Positions 1-5,110 of a stretch of 5,766 nucleotides of DNA are shown here, piece after piece. This DNA comes from JALSIF01 sp026981635 [NCBI: bacterium]. Its GTDB lineage: Bacteria; 4484-113; JALSIF01. Location: positions 1 through 5,766 of the forward strand of contig JALSIF010000033.1 of assembly GCA_026981635.1 (NCBI GenBank), given 5' to 3'. The translations under genes were made by a program, and so were the position numbers. Each line of letters starts with the position of its first letter. Within the stretch, counting starts at the first letter, position 1. The notes under the pieces were generated by a model. That model ran no database searches. It worked only from the letters and a program-made list of their open reading frames with translations, and was not told the DNA's origin.

Positions 1-550
1 GGCAACGCCATCTCCATCGACTCGGACGGCATCTACCCCAAGGGTCTCTCGGTGAGGGGCTCGGGGTTCGTAACCCTGGGCGGGATGGTCTGGCCCTGGG
101 AGCTGGCCGAGGGGGAGATCCGCCACAAGCTGGCCTTCAGCTATGACTTCACCAAGGCGGGAGGGCCGGTTCCTCCGGCCACCGAGAGCAACGGTTGGTT
201 CGACCCCCCCCGACGCCATCCCCGAAGGCGCCATCGTCCAGCTTGACCCCAGTCTGGACCTGGACAGTCTGGACCTCACCCCCATTGAGCGCACCATCGC
301 CAAGGCCCTGCAGGACTACGGCATGGTGCTGGTGGACGGGGGTGGGGGCATCCAGCTCTACCTGGCCAGCCCCCTCGCCGCCGGCAAGAACCACTGGTAC
401 AGCCTGCCCGATGTGGACTGGATTGAGCTTAGCGGCATACCGGTGGACCGCTTCCGGGTGCTTAGACTCCCGCCCCAGTATGAACCGGACATAGAGGTGG
501 TGGATACCGGCTGCAACCGTTTCGCCAACCCCAATCCCAATCCCCAATAA
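1..550 (+). pseudogene. 3' end of an unrecognised gene, frameshifted at an 8-C run
   Basis: The 5' end lies outside the window. Frame 1 is open from base 1 and reads as ordinary protein (GNAISIDSDGIYPKGL, then VTLGGMVWPWELAEGEIRHK) up to about base 210. It then degenerates into an Arg/Pro-rich tail and stops at 244-246. From base 212, frame 2 continues sensibly with DAIPEGAIVQLDPSLDLDSL, passes through an AKALQDYGMVLVD segment, and ends at a TAA at 548-550 after an NPNPNPQ tail. Removing one C from the run at 204-211 joins the two frames as ...WFDPPDAIPEGA... with no other change. The combined sequence is rich in Gly, Pro and aromatics and resembles conserved, probably secreted, high-GC bacterial proteins that carry a DAIPEGARLQLDPSLDL-like stretch. 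That resemblance is from memory and I assign no function. The gene is either truly broken or carries a homopolymer sequencing error. Confidence 0.6.
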
Positions 551-723: not shown

Positions 724-1197
724 ATGGGTGGGATGGTGAGGCGCTGGCACTTCAACCCCTACCACCAGCGGATTGACGAGTCCCTGGAGAAGGACCCCGG
801 TGAGGTGAGGGCCGACACCGAGTGGCCCGCCTGGCACGTCTTTCGCCAGCCCAAGCGGGGGGAGGCCCATGTCCTGGTGGGGATGGTCCATGCCCCCGAT
901 GCGGAGACCGCCCTGCTTCTGGCCAAGGAGCAGTACGCCCGGCGCGAAGACTGCGTAAATCTGTGGGTGGTGCGCACCGACCAGGTCCACGCCACCAGCT
1001 ATGAGGACGCCGACATGTTTGAGTTTGTAAGCGACCGCACCTACCGCCTCACTCGCGGGTTCCCGGTGGGCGAGAAGCTCAAGAAGATCAAGGCGGGAGA
1101 CCCCTACGCCGAGCGCCTGGAGACCCTGGAAGAGATAGAAAAAGAGCACGCGGGAAAGAAAATACCCCAGGAGGCTAGCGGTGACGGCTCCGACTGA
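724..1197 (+). CDS. paaB: PaaB-like subunit of a phenylacetyl-CoA epoxidase-type oxygenase
   Basis: 157 aa. PaaB is a small non-catalytic subunit of the multicomponent phenylacetyl-CoA 1,2-epoxidase, a cytoplasmic complex that activates the aromatic ring in aerobic phenylacetate degradation. The family core lies at about residues 34-112: WPAWHVF (34-40), HAPDAETALLLAKEQYARR (56-74) and NLWVVRT (79-85). All fit the PaaB pattern of an opening WP.WEVF, HAPD.E.AL..A...Y.RR and a WVV strand. The protein is longer than the roughly 95-aa E. coli form. It has a 33-residue N-terminal extension (RRWHFNPYHQRIDESLEKDP) and a charged C-terminal tail of about 45 residues with a helical KKIKAGDPYAERLETLEEIE stretch. 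The start is uncertain between ATG 724, with a weak AGGT at 717-720, and ATG 733. The paaC frame overlaps its end by 17 bases. No paaA lies upstream, where it usually stands. Confidence 0.85.
   Translation: MGGMVRRWHFNPYHQRIDESLEKDPGEVRADTEWPAWHVFRQPKRGEAHVLVGMVHAPDAETALLLAKEQYARREDCVNLWVVRTDQVHATSYEDADMFEFVSDRTYRLTRGFPVGEKLKKIKAGDPYAERLETLEEIEKEHAGKKIPQEASGDGSD
1169..1174 (+). promoter_or_regulatory. Ribosome binding site for the GTG-started paaC
   Basis: AGGAGG six bases before GTG 1181, inside the 3' end of paaB. It fixes the start at GTG 1181 although this is not an ATG, and it implies translational coupling between the overlapping genes. Confidence 0.8.
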
Positions 1198-1987
1198 CCC
1201 CGCCCTGAGGGAGGCCCTGGCCTCCTACCTCCTCGCCCTGGCCGACGATGAGCTGATCATCGGCCACCGCCTCTCCGAGTGGACCGGCCTGGGGCCCATC
1301 ATTGAAGAGGACATCGCCTGCTCCTCCATGGCCCAGGATGAGCTGGGCCACTCCCTCACCTACCACCGCCTGCGCAAATCCCTGGGGGTGGAGGAGGACC
1401 CCGACACCCTAAACTTCACCCGTCCCCCCGAGCAGTTTCTAAACGCCCTCCTCTGCGAGCTTCCCCGGGGCGACTACGGGTTTACCCTGGTGCGCCAGAC
1501 CCTCTATGACCTAGCCGAGTTCACCCGCCTGGAGGCCCACGCCGAGTCCTCCTCCTGGGAGGAGCTGGCCGAGGCCAGCCGAAAGCTCATGCAGGAGGAG
1601 AAGTACCACTTGGCCCACGGCGAGGCCATGACCCGCCGCCTGGCCACCGCCACCGACGAGTCCCGCCGGCGCATCCGCGATGCCTTCCATGAGCTTTTCC
1701 CCTACGCCCTGGGCCTGTTTGAGCCCCTGCCCCAGGAGGAACTGCTGGTCCAGGCGGGGATAAAGCCCGGCGAGAAGGAGCTTATGGACCGTTTCCTGGA
1801 CCGGTTGGACGGTTTCCTGGAGGGGACCGACCTGGAGGTGCCCGCCATTCGCTCCCTGGAAGGTGGCTGGGAACCTAAGGTGAGGCCGGTATTCGGCGGC
1901 CGCAAGGGTGAGCACACTGAACACTTGGCGAAGCTCCTTGGGGCCATGCAGATGCTGGTTCGGGAGCACCCCGGCGCCCAGTGGTAG
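1181..1987 (+). CDS. paaC: PaaC-like ferritin-fold oxygenase subunit with apparent di-iron ligands
   Basis: 268 aa, GTG start. The chain is related throughout to PaaC, the structural partner of the catalytic PaaA. Shared features are LADDELIIGHRLSEW near the N-terminus, DTLNFTRPPEQFLNALLCE (about 75-93) and the C-terminal GGRKGEHTEHL...MQMLVREHPGAQW (239-268), which parallels the end of E. coli PaaC closely. E. coli PaaC has lost its metal site. This protein keeps carboxylates and histidines where a ferritin-like di-iron centre would need them: Glu24, Glu54 and His57 in AQDELGH, Asp110 in TLYDLAEF, and Glu140 and His143 in EEKYH. The spacings are nearly the same as I recall for the catalytic PaaA of E. 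coli (E42, E72, H75, D126, E155, H158). It could be a structural PaaC with a residual metal site or the catalytic subunit of a PaaA-less enzyme. It overlaps paaB by 17 bases and is followed by paaD. Confidence 0.88.
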   Translation: MTAPTDPALREALASYLLALADDELIIGHRLSEWTGLGPIIEEDIACSSMAQDELGHSLTYHRLRKSLGVEEDPDTLNFTRPPEQFLNALLCELPRGDYGFTLVRQTLYDLAEFTRLEAHAESSSWEELAEASRKLMQEEKYHLAHGEAMTRRLATATDESRRRIRDAFHELFPYALGLFEPLPQEELLVQAGIKPGEKELMDRFLDRLDGFLEGTDLEVPAIRSLEGGWEPKVRPVFGGRKGEHTEHLAKLLGAMQMLVREHPGAQW

Positions 1988-2033: not shown

Positions 2034-2540
2034 ATGAGCGAGGAAAAGGGAAAAGAGGGAGAGAGGAGCGAGCGGGAACGCCGGGTCTGGGAGCTTCTAG
2101 CCCAGGTCACCGACCCGGAGATCCCCACCGTAAACATCGTTGAGCTGGGCCTGATTGAGTACGTCCAGGTGGAGGGAAACCAGGTTGAGGTGGGCTTCGT
2201 CCCCACCTTTGCCGGCTGCCCCGCCCTGGGGGTAATAAAGATCCAGATCGCCAAGGTGCTCATGGAGGCGGGCTTTGCCCCCCGGGTAAAGGTTTTGGAC
2301 ATCGTCTGGTCCACCGACCGCATCGCCGAGAGCGCCCGCCAGAAGATGAAGGAGATCGGCCTCTCGCCCCCGCGCCGCCATGGGGGAAGCTTTGACCCCC
2401 ACCTCACTGAGAAGGTGGCCTGCCCCTACTGTGGCTCAACCGAGACGGTGATGGAGAGCCCCTTCGGCCCCACTTTATGTCGGGCCATCTACTACTGCCG
2501 CGCCTGCCAGCAGCCCTTTGAGAAGTTCAAGGAGCTTTAG
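2034..2540 (+). CDS. paaD: PaaD-like MIP18-family maturation protein with a C-terminal zinc-ribbon
   Basis: 168 aa, close to the usual PaaD length. PaaD is needed for a working phenylacetyl-CoA epoxidase and belongs to the DUF59/MIP18 group of Fe-S or metal-centre assembly factors. Residues 18-115 hold that domain: DPEIPTVNIVELGLIEYV from Asp27, then a TFAGCPAL segment with the conserved Cys62. Residues 130-168 form the PaaD-specific Cys-rich tail, with C130-x2-C133, C149, and C155-x2-C158 followed by QQPFEKFKEL. This matches the E. coli tail (CPRCGS...PFDYFK) as I recall it. The first 17 residues are very charged (MSEEKGKEGERSERERR). ATG 2034 is the only reasonable start. Its Shine-Dalgarno is poor, with AGG touching the ATG, so coupling to paaC 46 bases upstream may matter. 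A GTG at 1908 in the same frame would overlap paaC by 80 bases and is unlikely. No paaE follows. Confidence 0.88.
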   Translation: MSEEKGKEGERSERERRVWELLAQVTDPEIPTVNIVELGLIEYVQVEGNQVEVGFVPTFAGCPALGVIKIQIAKVLMEAGFAPRVKVLDIVWSTDRIAESARQKMKEIGLSPPRRHGGSFDPHLTEKVACPYCGSTETVMESPFGPTLCRAIYYCRACQQPFEKFKEL

Positions 2541-2562: not shown

Positions 2563-2901
2563 TCAGTAGTACCTGGCCAGCACCCGGGCGATGGTGCGAA
2601 GTTTATCCTCTACCACCCTTCTCTCTTCTCCCTCCTCTCCCAGCCGGTCGGCGGTCTTTTCCAGCAGCAGCGAGAGCATAAAGGAGAAGGACTTGTTCAG
2701 CGCCTGGCGGGCGGCGGCCAGCTGCTGGGCGATGGCCTCGCAGGGGGCTTCCTCCTCCACCATCCGGCGAATGGCCCGAAGCTGCCCCTCAATGCGGGAA
2801 AGCCTTGCCTCCAGGGCCTGCTTCTCCCCCTCGCTGATCAGCCTTACCTCCTCGGTGACCAGGGGGTGCTCCGATTCTGAGCGGTGGTTGTGCTTTGCCA
2901 T
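2563..2901 (-). CDS. CsoR/CstR-family (DUF156) transcriptional repressor with a single cysteine
   Basis: 112 aa, all-helical repressor of the CsoR/RcnR/FrmR/CstR family. The core starts at about residue 30 with LEARLSRIEGQLRAIRRMVE, the family's RLxRIEGQxxGIxRM helix. It continues with EEEAPCEAIAQQLAAARQAL, which contains the conserved first Cys (Cys54). The N-terminus is His-rich (MAKHNHRSESEH). The position 29 residues after Cys54, a second Cys in both CstR and CsoR, is Thr83. The CsoR His position (+25) is Leu79. The copper C-H-C site and the CstR dithiol pair are therefore both incomplete. Being the last gene of a rhodanese/TusA/DsrE2 operon with a matching dyad in front suggests reactive-sulfur sensing and autoregulation. 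It lies 15 bases after dsrE2 with only a weak GGGGAC ribosome site. Its end is 22 bases from the convergent paaD stop. Family is secure; the inducer is inferred. Confidence 0.88.
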   Translation of the reverse strand: MAKHNHRSESEHPLVTEEVRLISEGEKQALEARLSRIEGQLRAIRRMVEEEAPCEAIAQQLAAARQALNKSFSFMLSLLLEKTADRLGEEGEERRVVEDKLRTIARVLARYY

Positions 2902-2916
2902 GATGAGTGTCCCCGG

Positions 2917-3516
2917 CTAGATGAACAGGGCGGTGCGGGCCCTCAGGGCTTCGCCCAGGAAGGTGCCCACTCCCCCAAACTCCACCCCCTCCATGAGCTC
3001 GCCGTCTGATATCCCCATCACCTGCTGGCTCATGTCGCAGGAGACGAAGCGCACGCCGAGCTCTCGGGCAAGCTCCATCAGCTCCTCCAGGGAGCTTACT
3101 CCCTGCTTTTTCATCATCGCCCGAAGCATCTTTGCCCCCATGCCGAAGAAGTTGAGCTTGGATACCCCAAGCCCCCGGGTGGAGGCGGGGCTCATCAGGG
3201 CCATCATCTTCTGCATGAAGTTCTTCCCCGCCAGCTTTTTCCCCTTGCGGATGGCGGAGAGGCCCCAGAAGGTGAAGAACATGGTCACCTCCATCCCCAT
3301 GGCGGCCGCCCCGGTGGCGATGACGAAGGCGGCCAGCACCCGGTCAAGGTCGCCGGAAAAGACCACCATGGCTACCTTGTCCTCCGGCACCCGCCGGCTG
3401 AGCTCCTCCACCCTCTGCTCAAGCTTTTTGATCCGCTCCGCCAGCTCACTTGCTCCACCAGCACCGTTGGCGGTGCCGGCCTCGCCCACGCTCTTTTCCA
3501 TCTGGTTCTCTTTCAT
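2917..3516 (-). CDS. dsrE2: DsrE2-like (DsrE/DsrF/DrsH family) sulfur-trafficking protein
   Basis: 199 aa. The family moves protein-bound sulfur, with the conserved cysteine as persulfide or thiosulfonate carrier. Residues 23-43 form a coiled-coil-like helix (ASELAERIKKLEQRVEELS). The domain follows: VAMVVFSGDLDRVLAAFVIA (48-67), ATGAAAMGMEVTMFFTFWGL (67-86), and a Met/Lys-rich middle around FFGMGAKMLRAMMKK (123-137). The active-site segment FVSCDMSQQVMGI has Cys160 as the only cysteine of the chain. The hydrophobic early segments raise the chance of membrane association, as described for DsrE2 proteins, but here they look like a buried Rossmann-like core. It is the third gene of the operon, 24 bases after tusA. 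ATG 3516 is chosen because a strong ribosome site lies seven bases upstream; ATG 3501 (MEKSVGE) is a weaker alternative. Confidence 0.88.
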   Translation of the reverse strand: MKENQMEKSVGEAGTANGAGGASELAERIKKLEQRVEELSRRVPEDKVAMVVFSGDLDRVLAAFVIATGAAAMGMEVTMFFTFWGLSAIRKGKKLAGKNFMQKMMALMSPASTRGLGVSKLNFFGMGAKMLRAMMKKQGVSSLEELMELARELGVRFVSCDMSQQVMGISDGELMEGVEFGGVGTFLGEALRARTALFI

Positions 3517-3523
3517 CTCCGAC

Positions 3524-3531
3524 TACCTCCC
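3524..3531 (-). promoter_or_regulatory. Ribosome binding site for dsrE2
   Basis: On the minus strand this reads GGGAGGTA, seven bases before ATG 3516, in the 24-base gap after the tusA stop. It supports ATG 3516 over the internal ATG at 3501. Confidence 0.75.
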
Positions 3532-3540
3532 TTGACGGTC

Positions 3541-3804
3541 TCAGGCGGTCTTCCTCAGGTAGTGGAGGTAGAGCTTTCTGCCCTCCTCCTCCACCTCGTG
3601 CTGGGCCAACAGCTCAAAGTCACTGGCGCTCTGGGCCCAGCCCTGAAAGTCCTTGATGGAACCGCGGTCGGTGGCCACCACCCGGAGCACCTGCCCCGGC
3701 TCAAGCTCCTTTAGGGCCTGGCGCGCCTTCACCACCGGCATAGGACAGCTTAGCCCCCTGGCGTCCACCTCCAGGTCAAACTGGATCTCCACCTGGTCAC
3801 TCAT
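3541..3804 (-). CDS. tusA: TusA-like sulfur carrier protein
   Basis: 87 aa, typical of TusA/SirA/YedF proteins, which carry sulfur as a persulfide on one cysteine. The N-terminal VDARGLSCPMPVVKARQAL (residues 13-31) holds the hallmark CPxP motif with Cys20. The betaalphabeta fold continues through LEPGQVLRVVATDRGSIKDF and a C-terminal strand, KLYLHYLRKTA. The open frame extends upstream to 3888, but those residues are the rhodanese/MBL gene read in another frame. ATG 3804 is selected by a GGAGGTG site six bases before it. Start and stop overlap the upstream gene by eight bases (3797-3804), so translation is probably coupled. Association with a rhodanese and DsrE2 matches the known rhd-tusA-dsrE clusters that move sulfur between proteins. 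Confidence 0.9.
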   Translation of the reverse strand: MSDQVEIQFDLEVDARGLSCPMPVVKARQALKELEPGQVLRVVATDRGSIKDFQGWAQSASDFELLAQHEVEEEGRKLYLHYLRKTA

Positions 3805-5062
3805 CACCATCACCTCCATCGGGGTTTCCGTTGCCCTCGGCCCCCTGATAGGCCTGGGCCAGGGCGCAGATGTTCTTGCCCAGCTCAAGCTCGCTTGCCT
3901 TCTCCTCGTCGGGTCTCACCAGCCCGCCGTTTACCCGCTTGATCTCCACATACTGCTCGGGAAACTCGGGCAGGCTGGAAAGTAGATAGCGGATGTAGGC
4001 CTCCTCCCCCTCCTCAAGCTTACTAAGTCCCTCGTTTTCTTTCCTCAGCCGACCAAGCTCGCGGCGAAAGATCCCCCACTCATCGGCCTCGGCCAGCTTG
4101 CTGAAGTGACCCGGCAGCACCACCGTCTCGCCGGGAAGCTCGGCCAGCCGCCTGAGGGAGCGGTAGTGGATGGGCGCCCAGCGCTCCCCCTGTCCGCCCA
4201 GGTCGGGCCGCGCCACCGAGTCAATGAAGATGGTGTCCCCGGTAAGCAGGAAGCGGTCGTCCACCACCAGGGCGGTGTTGCCCAGGGTGTGGCCGGGCAC
4301 ATGTAGCACCCTCACCTTGCTCTCCCCAAAGCCGATCTCGCTTCCCTCCCTCAGGTAGTCATACTCAAGTTCAGCCGGCAGCATGTCAATGGGGTGGATG
4401 CCGTCGTAGGGGTGGAGGTAGTAGGGAACCCCAAGGCGGGCGGCAAGCTCCGGGCCCCCGCTGATGTGGTCGGCGTGGGCGTGAGTATCAATCACCGCAA
4501 CGAGCTTTGCCCCCCGCTCCCTGAGCACCTCCTCGTAGGGGCGAAGATGCCTGCCCGGGTCAACCACCACCGCTTCACCCCGGCTGATGGCCACATAGCT
4601 GAGGCATCCCCGGGCGATGCGCTGTCCCTGGAGTAGGGTGAGCCGCTCCCCCTGCTCCACCAGAGCGAAGCGGTAAAAGTTGCCCCAGGCCACCATCCCG
4701 CCGGCCAGGTTCACCGCCCGGTAGCCCAGCCTGCGCAGCGCCTGGGCCACCAGGTCGGAGGTGTCCCCCTTGGCGCAGACCACCAGGATCTCCCCTTCGC
4801 GGGGAAGCCGGTCGGTCAGGTGGCGCTCGGCGTAGGTGGCGAGGGCCCCCACCACATCGTCTCCCTCCAGGTAGTCAAACATCTCAAAGTAGGGCTGGTT
4901 TACCGCCTCCAGGGGCCCGTCCCGGCCCTCCAGCCGCCAGCGTTCAAACTCGTCCCGGTTGCGCACATCCAGCACGAAGGGGCGCTCCCCGGCCATCAGC
5001 CGATCGGCAAGTGCGCTCGCCCCGATCTGAAAGTCACTCTGAGTTTGGGTCATGCTTTCCAT
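3797..5062 (-). CDS. Rhodanese - metallo-beta-lactamase fusion, persulfide dioxygenase-like
   Basis: 421 aa from ATG 5062. Residues about 12-130 are a rhodanese domain: FVLDVRNRDEFERW (29-42), then ILVVC with active-site loop C96-A-K-G-D-T-S102 and the closing NLAGGMVAW. Residues about 140-345 are a metallo-beta-lactamase domain: THAHADH (193-199), VPGHT with His258, TGDT with Asp276 and LPGHF with His319. The ETHE1-type mononuclear iron triad would be His194, His258 and Asp276. Such enzymes oxidise glutathione or other low-molecular-weight persulfide to sulfite, and the rhodanese domain transfers sulfane sulfur to or from thiols. About 75 C-terminal residues follow (LPEFPEQYVEIKRVNGG, then NICALAQAY), seen in related rhodanese/MBL proteins. 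Sulfide-quinone reductase or glyoxalase II-like activity is less likely, given this context. An upstream ATG at 5086 lies in the operator dyad without a ribosome site and is rejected. First gene of the operon. Confidence 0.88.
   Translation of the reverse strand: MESMTQTQSDFQIGASALADRLMAGERPFVLDVRNRDEFERWRLEGRDGPLEAVNQPYFEMFDYLEGDDVVGALATYAERHLTDRLPREGEILVVCAKGDTSDLVAQALRRLGYRAVNLAGGMVAWGNFYRFALVEQGERLTLLQGQRIARGCLSYVAISRGEAVVVDPGRHLRPYEEVLRERGAKLVAVIDTHAHADHISGGPELAARLGVPYYLHPYDGIHPIDMLPAELEYDYLREGSEIGFGESKVRVLHVPGHTLGNTALVVDDRFLLTGDTIFIDSVARPDLGGQGERWAPIHYRSLRRLAELPGETVVLPGHFSKLAEADEWGIFRRELGRLRKENEGLSKLEEGEEAYIRYLLSSLPEFPEQYVEIKRVNGGLVRPDEEKASELELGKNICALAQAYQGAEGNGNPDGGDGDE
3811..3817 (-). 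promoter_or_regulatory. Ribosome binding site for tusA
   Basis: Reads GGAGGTG on the minus strand, six bases before ATG 3804 and within the 3' end of the upstream gene. It decides the tusA start among three closely spaced in-frame ATGs (3819, 3810, 3804), the first two being too close to the site. Confidence 0.75.
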
Positions 5063-5070
5063 GGCTGTCC

Positions 5071-5077
5071 TACCTCC
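5071..5077 (-). promoter_or_regulatory. Ribosome binding site for the rhodanese/MBL gene
   Basis: Reads GGAGGTA on the minus strand, eight bases before ATG 5062. It places the start 24 bases downstream of the first in-frame ATG (5086). Confidence 0.8.
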
Positions 5078-5084
5078 GATGAGC

Positions 5085-5110
5085 ATACCATACCCCGTAG
5101 GGTATCATAT
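5085..5110. promoter_or_regulatory. CsoR/CstR-type operator dyad
   Basis: The core ATACCCCGTAGGGTAT (5090-5105) has two perfect six-base arms, ATACCC and GGGTAT, around a CGTA centre. Symmetry returns further out with ATA at 5085-5087 and TAT at 5108-5110, so 9 of 11 arm positions pair. G/C-rich TACCC...GGGTA dyads flanked by A/T are the known operator style of CsoR-family repressors, and one such repressor is the last gene of this operon. It lies 23-48 bases before ATG 5062, where a bound repressor would block transcription. It is also about 145 bases upstream of the divergent gene at 5254, which it may or may not affect. Confidence 0.75.

What the first reader, a model, noticed from the sequence alone, without database searches (positions are those of the whole stretch)
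1181..1987. PaaC-like chain with a complete-looking di-iron ligand set
E. coli PaaC has a ferritin fold without a metal site. Here Glu24, Glu54, His57, Asp110, Glu140 and His143 reproduce the pattern of the catalytic PaaA (E42, E72, H75, D126, E155, H158). The spacing Glu24-Glu54 is 30, as for E42-E72. Both ExxH pairs are present, and Asp110-Glu140 is 30 against 29. This chain might bind iron and be catalytic. Some non-enterobacterial PaaC proteins may keep part of this site, so novelty depends on comparison.
Basis: partly seen in the sequence, partly recalled or inferred. Interest (0 to 1): 0.7.

Follow-up and report, generated by a model that had tools for sequence, protein, structure and literature searches.

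The report
PaaC subunit with intact metal ligands
The so-called structural subunit of the ring-opening enzyme phenylacetyl-CoA epoxidase carries here, and in many other bacteria and some salt-loving archaea, the full set of six residues that hold two iron atoms in its catalytic sister subunit, so it probably binds metal although the sister subunit, which this genome also has, most likely does the chemistry.

Summary
The ORF at 1181-1987 is a full-length PaaC (TIGR02158, 216 bits). Its E24, E54, H57, D110, E140 and H143 fall on the di-iron ligand columns of E. coli PaaA (E42, E72, H75, D126, E155, H158); E. coli PaaC has C, L, Q, D, A, H there. A confident fold model (pLDDT 96) puts them on four helices in the usual order. 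Distances were not measured.

It is not peculiar to this genome. Of 158 distinct PaaC rows readable at all six positions, 66 keep the whole set. On a PaaA-rooted tree the intact site is ancestral, with six losses and no gain; one loss gives the E. coli type.

Catalysis by PaaC is not supported. The genome has a separate PaaA with the complete set. PaaA's lysine-bridge residues (K68, E49) and F108, Q133 and Y144 occur in none of 55 intact PaaC compared. One intact PaaC (L026) came from a genome without a detected PaaA.

Best reading: an ancestral, conserved, probably metal-loaded auxiliary site in the partner subunit of a PaaABCD epoxidase. Metal occupancy and role are inferred. No passage seen here describes it, but the 2011 structure paper was not held.

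The parts
724..1197 (+). paaB-like bridging subunit, 157 aa; overlaps the start of paaC by 17 bases
   Evidence: PF06243 83 bits, over cut-off; TIGR02157 68 bits, under its cut-off of 85
1169..1174 (+). AGGAGG, ribosome-binding-like sequence before paaC
   Evidence: read in the sequence
1181..1987 (+). paaC, 268 aa, start GTG, with the complete PaaA-type di-iron ligand set
   Evidence: TIGR02158 216.5 bits, cut-off 133.35; alignments; model
1250..1252 (+). codon of E24 (PaaA E42 column)
1340..1342 (+). codon of E54 (PaaA E72 column)
1349..1351 (+). codon of H57 (PaaA H75 column)
1508..1510 (+). codon of D110 (PaaA D126 column)
1598..1600 (+). codon of E140 (PaaA E155 column)
1607..1609 (+). 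codon of H143 (PaaA H158 column)
2034..2540 (+). paaD (iron-sulfur assembly-like domain plus zinc ribbon); searched as 2031-2537, one codon more at the start
   Evidence: TIGR02159 161.5 bits, cut-off 108; PF23451 and PF01883; ATG read

Best explanation
This is the PaaC partner subunit of a PaaABCD-type ring epoxidase. It has kept the dinuclear metal site that the common ancestor of PaaA and PaaC had. It folds as a PaaA-like helical bundle and should pair with the PaaA encoded elsewhere in the genome. PaaA does the oxygen chemistry. The PaaC site most likely also binds two metal ions (iron, or another divalent metal), giving about two dinuclear sites per PaaA-PaaC pair, and serves the complex by stabilising the bundle and the heterodimer or by handling electrons or oxygen. 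Shown: the ligand set, its homology to the PaaA site, its ancestral and conserved state, the presence of PaaA in the genome, and the absence of PaaA's lysine-bridge residues. Inferred: metal occupancy, pairing with this PaaA, and the role.
For: All six ligand columns identical to PaaA. Fold model pLDDT 96.4; best solved match E. coli PaaC (TM 0.88 by model length, 0.95 by chain length); PaaA also matches (0.83 by model length). A PaaA with all six ligands lies on contig C17 of the same genome. Retention is all or several lost: among 124 PaaC thinned at 75% identity, ligand counts are six: 55, five: 1, four: 17, three: 7, two: 28, one: 16; 8.6 complete sets would be expected if the positions were lost independently, a figure that ignores kinship. 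Tree rooted on PaaA: intact ancestor, six losses, no gain; a broken root costs nine changes. In a tree-defined 32-row clade the set is complete in 31 rows, at pairwise identities down to 30%. K68, E49, F108, Q133 and Y144 of PaaA are in none of the 55 intact PaaC.
Against: No metal measurement and no coordinates; six aligned ligands do not prove binding. The E. coli complex was reported to have iron only in PaaA and PaaE (PMC4498308, passages), though that PaaC lacks four of the ligands. Loss in six lineages shows that the site is dispensable for the complex in general. PaaE and PaaK families found nothing in this 85%-complete genome, so that this copy acts on phenylacetyl-CoA is itself unproven. 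The tree is a quick one with 44 of 110 inner branches weakly supported.
Confidence: 0.62

Rival explanations
1. The PaaC site is a second catalytic centre: PaaC itself activates oxygen on a substrate of its own, so the heterodimer has two oxygenase sites.
For: Complete ligand set. One genome, G097 (L026, Phycisphaerae), has an intact PaaC and no second PF05138 match at E <= 1e-10. A tyrosine next to the fourth ligand (Y109) goes with the intact site (84% of intact rows, 19% of E. coli-type, 11% of other broken, 0% of PaaA).
Against: PaaA K68, E49, F108, Q133 and Y144 occur in none of 55 intact PaaC. Of 66 intact PaaC, 62 have a PaaA-type row in the same stretch of DNA and 3 more have one elsewhere in the genome; the one exception may be an incomplete MAG.
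Confidence: 0.08
2. The six residues are kept for folding or packing alone, as a buried charge and hydrogen-bond network, and bind no metal.
For: H143 and the neighbouring E139 stay even in PaaC that lost the rest (H in 68 of 69 broken rows, E139 in 69 of 69), so part of the network has a use without the site.
Against: Two ExxH motifs plus a Glu and an Asp/Glu are the dinuclear ligand set of this fold. The other ligands are lost in groups: only 1 of 69 broken rows lacks just one.
Confidence: 0.2
3. The PaaC site is redox-active and stands in for, or relays electrons from, a reductase other than PaaE.
For: PaaE (TIGR02160, E <= 1e-40) was found in 3 of 40 intact-site genomes and 28 of 40 broken-site genomes (Fisher p 8e-9).
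Against: The association is between a few clades: 3 independent pairs on starred branches, sign test p 1. Twelve of 40 broken-site genomes also lack PaaE, and three intact-site Bacteroidia have it.
Confidence: 0.1

Closest known systems
E. coli / Klebsiella PaaC (TIGR02158; PDB 3pvr, 4iit, 1otk), structural subunit of phenylacetyl-CoA epoxidase
   Same: Whole-length family match, fold (TM 0.88/0.95), neighbours paaB and paaD, C-terminal GG(R/K)KGxHTEHL and final W.
   Different: E. coli PaaC has lost four of the six ligands (E24, E54, H57 and E140 columns are C, L, Q, A) and keeps only the Asp and the last His.
E. coli PaaA (TIGR02156), catalytic di-iron subunit
   Same: All six ligands and the fold.
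   Different: TIGR02156 score 26 bits against a cut-off of 280; K68, E49, F108, Q133 and Y144 absent.
BoxB, benzoyl-CoA epoxidase
   Same: Ferritin-like bundle with a di-iron site; VIA-align Z 18.8, rmsd 2.3 over 224 residues.
   Different: 14% identity; BoxB needs no structural subunit (PMC4498308, passage).
SSO1313 of Sulfolobus solfataricus (PDB 4mud) and cyanobacterial aldehyde-deformylating oxygenase (4rc5)
   Same: Same fold, Z 22.5 and 19.4.
   Different: 17% and 13% identity.

Membership tests
PaaC (TIGR02158) | Score over the curated cut-off of 133.35 bits, full length | tested here: met
   216.5 bits, profile 1-237 of 237
PaaC (TIGR02158) | Lies with paaB and paaD and has a PaaA in the genome | tested here: met
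   paaB 724-1197 and paaD 2034-2540 in the window; PaaA on contig C17, not linked to paaBCD
PaaC (TIGR02158) | Metal ligands lost, as in E. coli PaaC | tested here: not met
   All six columns are those of PaaA. This is not a defining feature of the family as a whole: 66 of 158 distinct rows keep the set
PaaA (TIGR02156) | Score over the curated cut-off of 280 bits | tested here: not met
   26.1 bits
PaaA (TIGR02156) | Di-iron ligand set E, E, H, D, E, H | tested here: met
PaaA (TIGR02156) | Lysine bridge K68 with E49, and F108 | tested here: not met
   M50, L31, C92 here
Dinuclear metal protein of the ferritin-like fold | Ligands on four helices in the order E, ExxH, D/E, ExxH | tested here: met
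   helices of the model with the ligand positions
Dinuclear metal protein of the ferritin-like fold | Ligands converge within bonding distance; metal is bound | not testable with these tools
   no coordinates are returned; needs metal analysis or a structure

The most novel reading that the evidence does not exclude
A large, old part of the phenylacetyl-CoA epoxidase family, from haloarchaea to Actinomycetota and Chloroflexota, is a double di-iron enzyme: PaaA and PaaC each hold a dinuclear centre, and the PaaC centre is redox-active in turnover (oxygen or electron handling), a function lost six times, once in the lineage of the E. coli and Klebsiella proteins from which the solved PaaC structures found here come.
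Probability: 0.2. Interest if true: 0.75.

Novelty: new variant of a known kind. Interest (0 to 1): 0.5.

Why it matters
PaaC is described as the structural subunit, and that picture rests on enterobacterial proteins that have lost the ligands. If PaaC of other lineages binds metal, the iron count, assembly and perhaps mechanism of this enzyme differ from the model, and the family shows living stages of how one half of a duplicated di-iron oxygenase becomes a scaffold. It is directly testable by metal analysis of one purified complex.

Tried and rejected
Rejected: that PaaC is the only PaaA/PaaC-family protein here and hence the oxygenase (a PaaA is present). Rejected: that the motif is peculiar to this genome. 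Not shown: that loss of the site goes with PaaE (strong raw association, no independent support on the tree). Without result: distances between the six residues, because structure prediction returns no coordinates; a radical-tyrosine analogy, because the conserved Tyr after ExxH is one position off the place I recall for ribonucleotide reductase R2 and is shared with PaaA (read by eye). Methane monooxygenase and R2-like oxidases turn up only as more distant fold matches. Literature searches and the passages read gave no statement of a metal site in PaaC; the 2011 JBC structure paper is not held, so a remark there cannot be excluded. Left unused: the second structure job, one genome search, three paper searches.

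Selection and dropped rows. One search kept the best 80 of 82 relatives. In one search all 24 hits over the family cut-off were given as loci. In one search 17 hits over the cut-off had no locus; 16 were fetched, the other (G104) was already held as L023. In one search 7 had none and were fetched. Of 164 PaaC-class rows, 4 were near-copies (98% or more) of others, and 2 (two pieces of one gene, L080) had gaps at the ligand columns: 158 remain; the window's own and E. coli's PaaC are not counted. My first count (70 of 162) still held the near-copies. For one search, 159 rows of at least 215 aa were thinned to 124 at 75% identity; for the tree to 102 at 66%, plus the window and E. coli; the 10 PaaA outgroup rows hold one duplicate. 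The PaaE test used 80 of 134 genomes. 'Intact' allows Asp for the first and Glu for the fourth ligand. In scripts I labelled the phylum of G104 'Pseudomonadota' after its record title (Ectothiorhodospiraceae); the tool does not name the phylum, and the mix of sequences makes me doubt the title.

Full report
Observation. The ORF at 1181-1987 is PaaC: TIGR02158 216.5 bits against a cut-off of 133.35, and PF05138 231 bits. It starts at GTG six bases after AGGAGG, overlaps a paaB-like gene by 17 bases, and is followed by paaD at 2034-2540. That these six are PaaA's ligands is taken from PMC4498308 (passages read): it names Glu42, Glu72, His75, Asp126, Glu155 and His158 as the expected iron ligands and says that iron soaked into crystals bound there.

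Fold. The AlphaFold model from 59 sequences has mean pLDDT 96.4 and pTM 0.93. Its best solved matches are E. coli PaaC (3pvr_C, TM 0.88 by model and 0.95 by chain length, rmsd 1.6) and then PaaA (TM 0.81 to 0.83 by model length); VIA-align gives Z 34.2 for PaaC. The ligands lie on helices 7-32, 41-66, 99-123 and 127-155.

Genome context. The window is the whole of contig C33 of a 1.75 Mb, 317-contig, 85%-complete assembly. PF05138 has two matches in it: this PaaC and a PaaA (275 bits) on contig C17, whose six columns are E, E, H, D, E, H. PaaA is present but not linked to paaBCD. TIGR02160 (PaaE) and TIGR02155 (PaaK) found nothing at E <= 0.001, though both rang in most of the 14 control genomes through related proteins; four enoyl-CoA hydratase matches exist. 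The substrate of this copy is thus open. The nine genomes of the same class that were searched have no PF05138 match, so the genes may have been acquired.

Distribution. PaaC rows came from a scan of genome contigs, genome samples (completed), genomes of earlier loci and plasmid records. Of 160 distinct rows, 158 can be read at all six positions and 66 have the complete set. By source: 22 of 34 in the phylum of G117 (Actinomycetota by record title), 14 of 23 in the phylum of G109 (Chloroflexi by title), 4 of 45 in the phylum of G104 (not named; title Ectothiorhodospiraceae), 21 of 40 in the genome-contig scan (titles of intact ones include Planctomycetota, Chloroflexi, Armatimonadetes, Actinomycetota and Bacteroidia), 2 of 9 and 1 of 2 in the two mixed samples, 2 of 2 haloarchaeal and 0 of 3 other plasmid rows. 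These samples are not even draws from nature, and one search was aimed at relatives of this very protein, so the fractions describe the sets only. Of 213 rows classed as PaaA-type, 191 are EEHDEH; of the other 22, 19 are cut off or gapped but agree where they can be read, and three divergent rows differ (EEQDEH, SEHDEH, -TDDEH). The 142 PaaA rows over 35% identical to E. coli PaaA agree throughout, one of them with a gap.

PaaA partner. Of the 66 intact PaaC, 62 have a PaaA-type row in the same stretch of DNA; L028, L035 and L249 have one elsewhere in the genome; L026 has none. In one search, 22 of 23 genomes have two PF05138 matches; the exception is G097 (L026, Phycisphaerae). In one search all 24 genomes with a match over the PaaC cut-off have at least a second match.

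Conservation of the site. Among 124 thinned PaaC the number of kept ligands is six in 55, five in 1, four in 17, three in 7, two in 28 and one in 16; 8.6 complete sets are expected if the six were lost independently, ignoring kinship. On a tree of 104 PaaC and 10 PaaA built without the six columns (quick method, SH-aLRT only, 44 of 110 inner branches under 80), the intact state needs six losses and no gain from a PaaA-like root, against nine changes from a broken root. Starred branches alone force at least four changes of 'broken'. The losses are the E. coli-type clade (37 rows), a Bacteroidota-like clade (13 rows, Lys or Gln for E54 and Leu or Ile for E140), one row near it (L044), a pair with Lys for E140 (L031, L156), a Deinococcus row with Lys for E140 (L104) and one row in the phylum of G117 (L278). 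In a 32-row clade (SH-aLRT 96) with mean identity 45%, 31 rows are intact.

Why PaaC is probably not the oxygenase. PaaA's Lys68, Glu49, Phe108, Gln133 and Tyr144 are each found in 142 of 142 PaaA rows and in none of 55 intact PaaC. PMC4498308 (passages) ties Lys68, Glu49, Glu72 and Asp126 to the lysine bridge near the di-iron centre and Phe108 to placing the ring. The intact PaaC site has a second shell of its own: Q52 is shared with PaaA and lost in the E. coli type, while Y109 and L117 go with the intact site and are not found in the PaaA rows of the tree. So the centre, if filled, is differently tuned.

Reductase. PaaE (E <= 1e-40) was found in 3 of 40 intact-site and 28 of 40 broken-site genomes (p 8e-9). 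The tree gives only three independent contrasts and no support (sign test p 1), and incomplete assemblies add noise. It is a lead, not a result.

Literature. Seen: passages of PMC4498308 and PMC9493321; abstract, outline and passages of PMC13186573; search listings. In these PaaC is the structural subunit, and I saw no mention of PaaC proteins with a full ligand set. The 2011 JBC paper on PaaAC was not held. I therefore call this a new variant of a known kind; specialists may have seen it in alignments.

Verdict. Metal binding I put near 0.7; catalysis on substrate near 0.08.

Noticed in passing
L061-L066 and L069-L102 (for example L062:5845-6789); L106: A second paired system in Ktedonobacterales, Solirubrobacter, Chloroflexi and Thermus: a PaaA-like chain, usually a PaaD-like gene, and a PaaC-like partner with Lys in place of the first ligand (KEHDEH in 31 of 36 fully readable genome-contig rows). 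BLAST with E. coli PaaB found a weak PaaB match in only one of these genome-contig loci (L078).
   Followed up: partly
L026:5905-6750 (genome G097, Phycisphaerae): An intact-site PaaC without PaaA, PaaB or PaaD matches in its 12.7 kb locus and without another PF05138 match in the genome.
   Followed up: partly
window 2563-5086, - strand: A metal-sensitive repressor (PF02583), a DsrE2-like protein, TusA, and a rhodanese/metallo-beta-lactamase protein in a row: looks like sulfur handling.
   Followed up: no
G000 contig C17:1829-2788, - strand (L001:1456-2415): paaA stands apart from paaBCD, beside a gene for a 227-aa protein that looks to me like a DtxR-type metal regulator (read by eye, not searched).
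   Followed up: no
window 143-550: ORF of 135 aa upstream of paaB without a Pfam or NCBIfam match at E <= 0.001.
   Followed up: no
window 1505-1510 (Y109-D110): Tyr directly before the fourth ligand goes with the intact site in PaaC (84% of intact rows) and is absent from the 10 PaaA rows of the tree; a candidate second-shell residue.
   Followed up: partly
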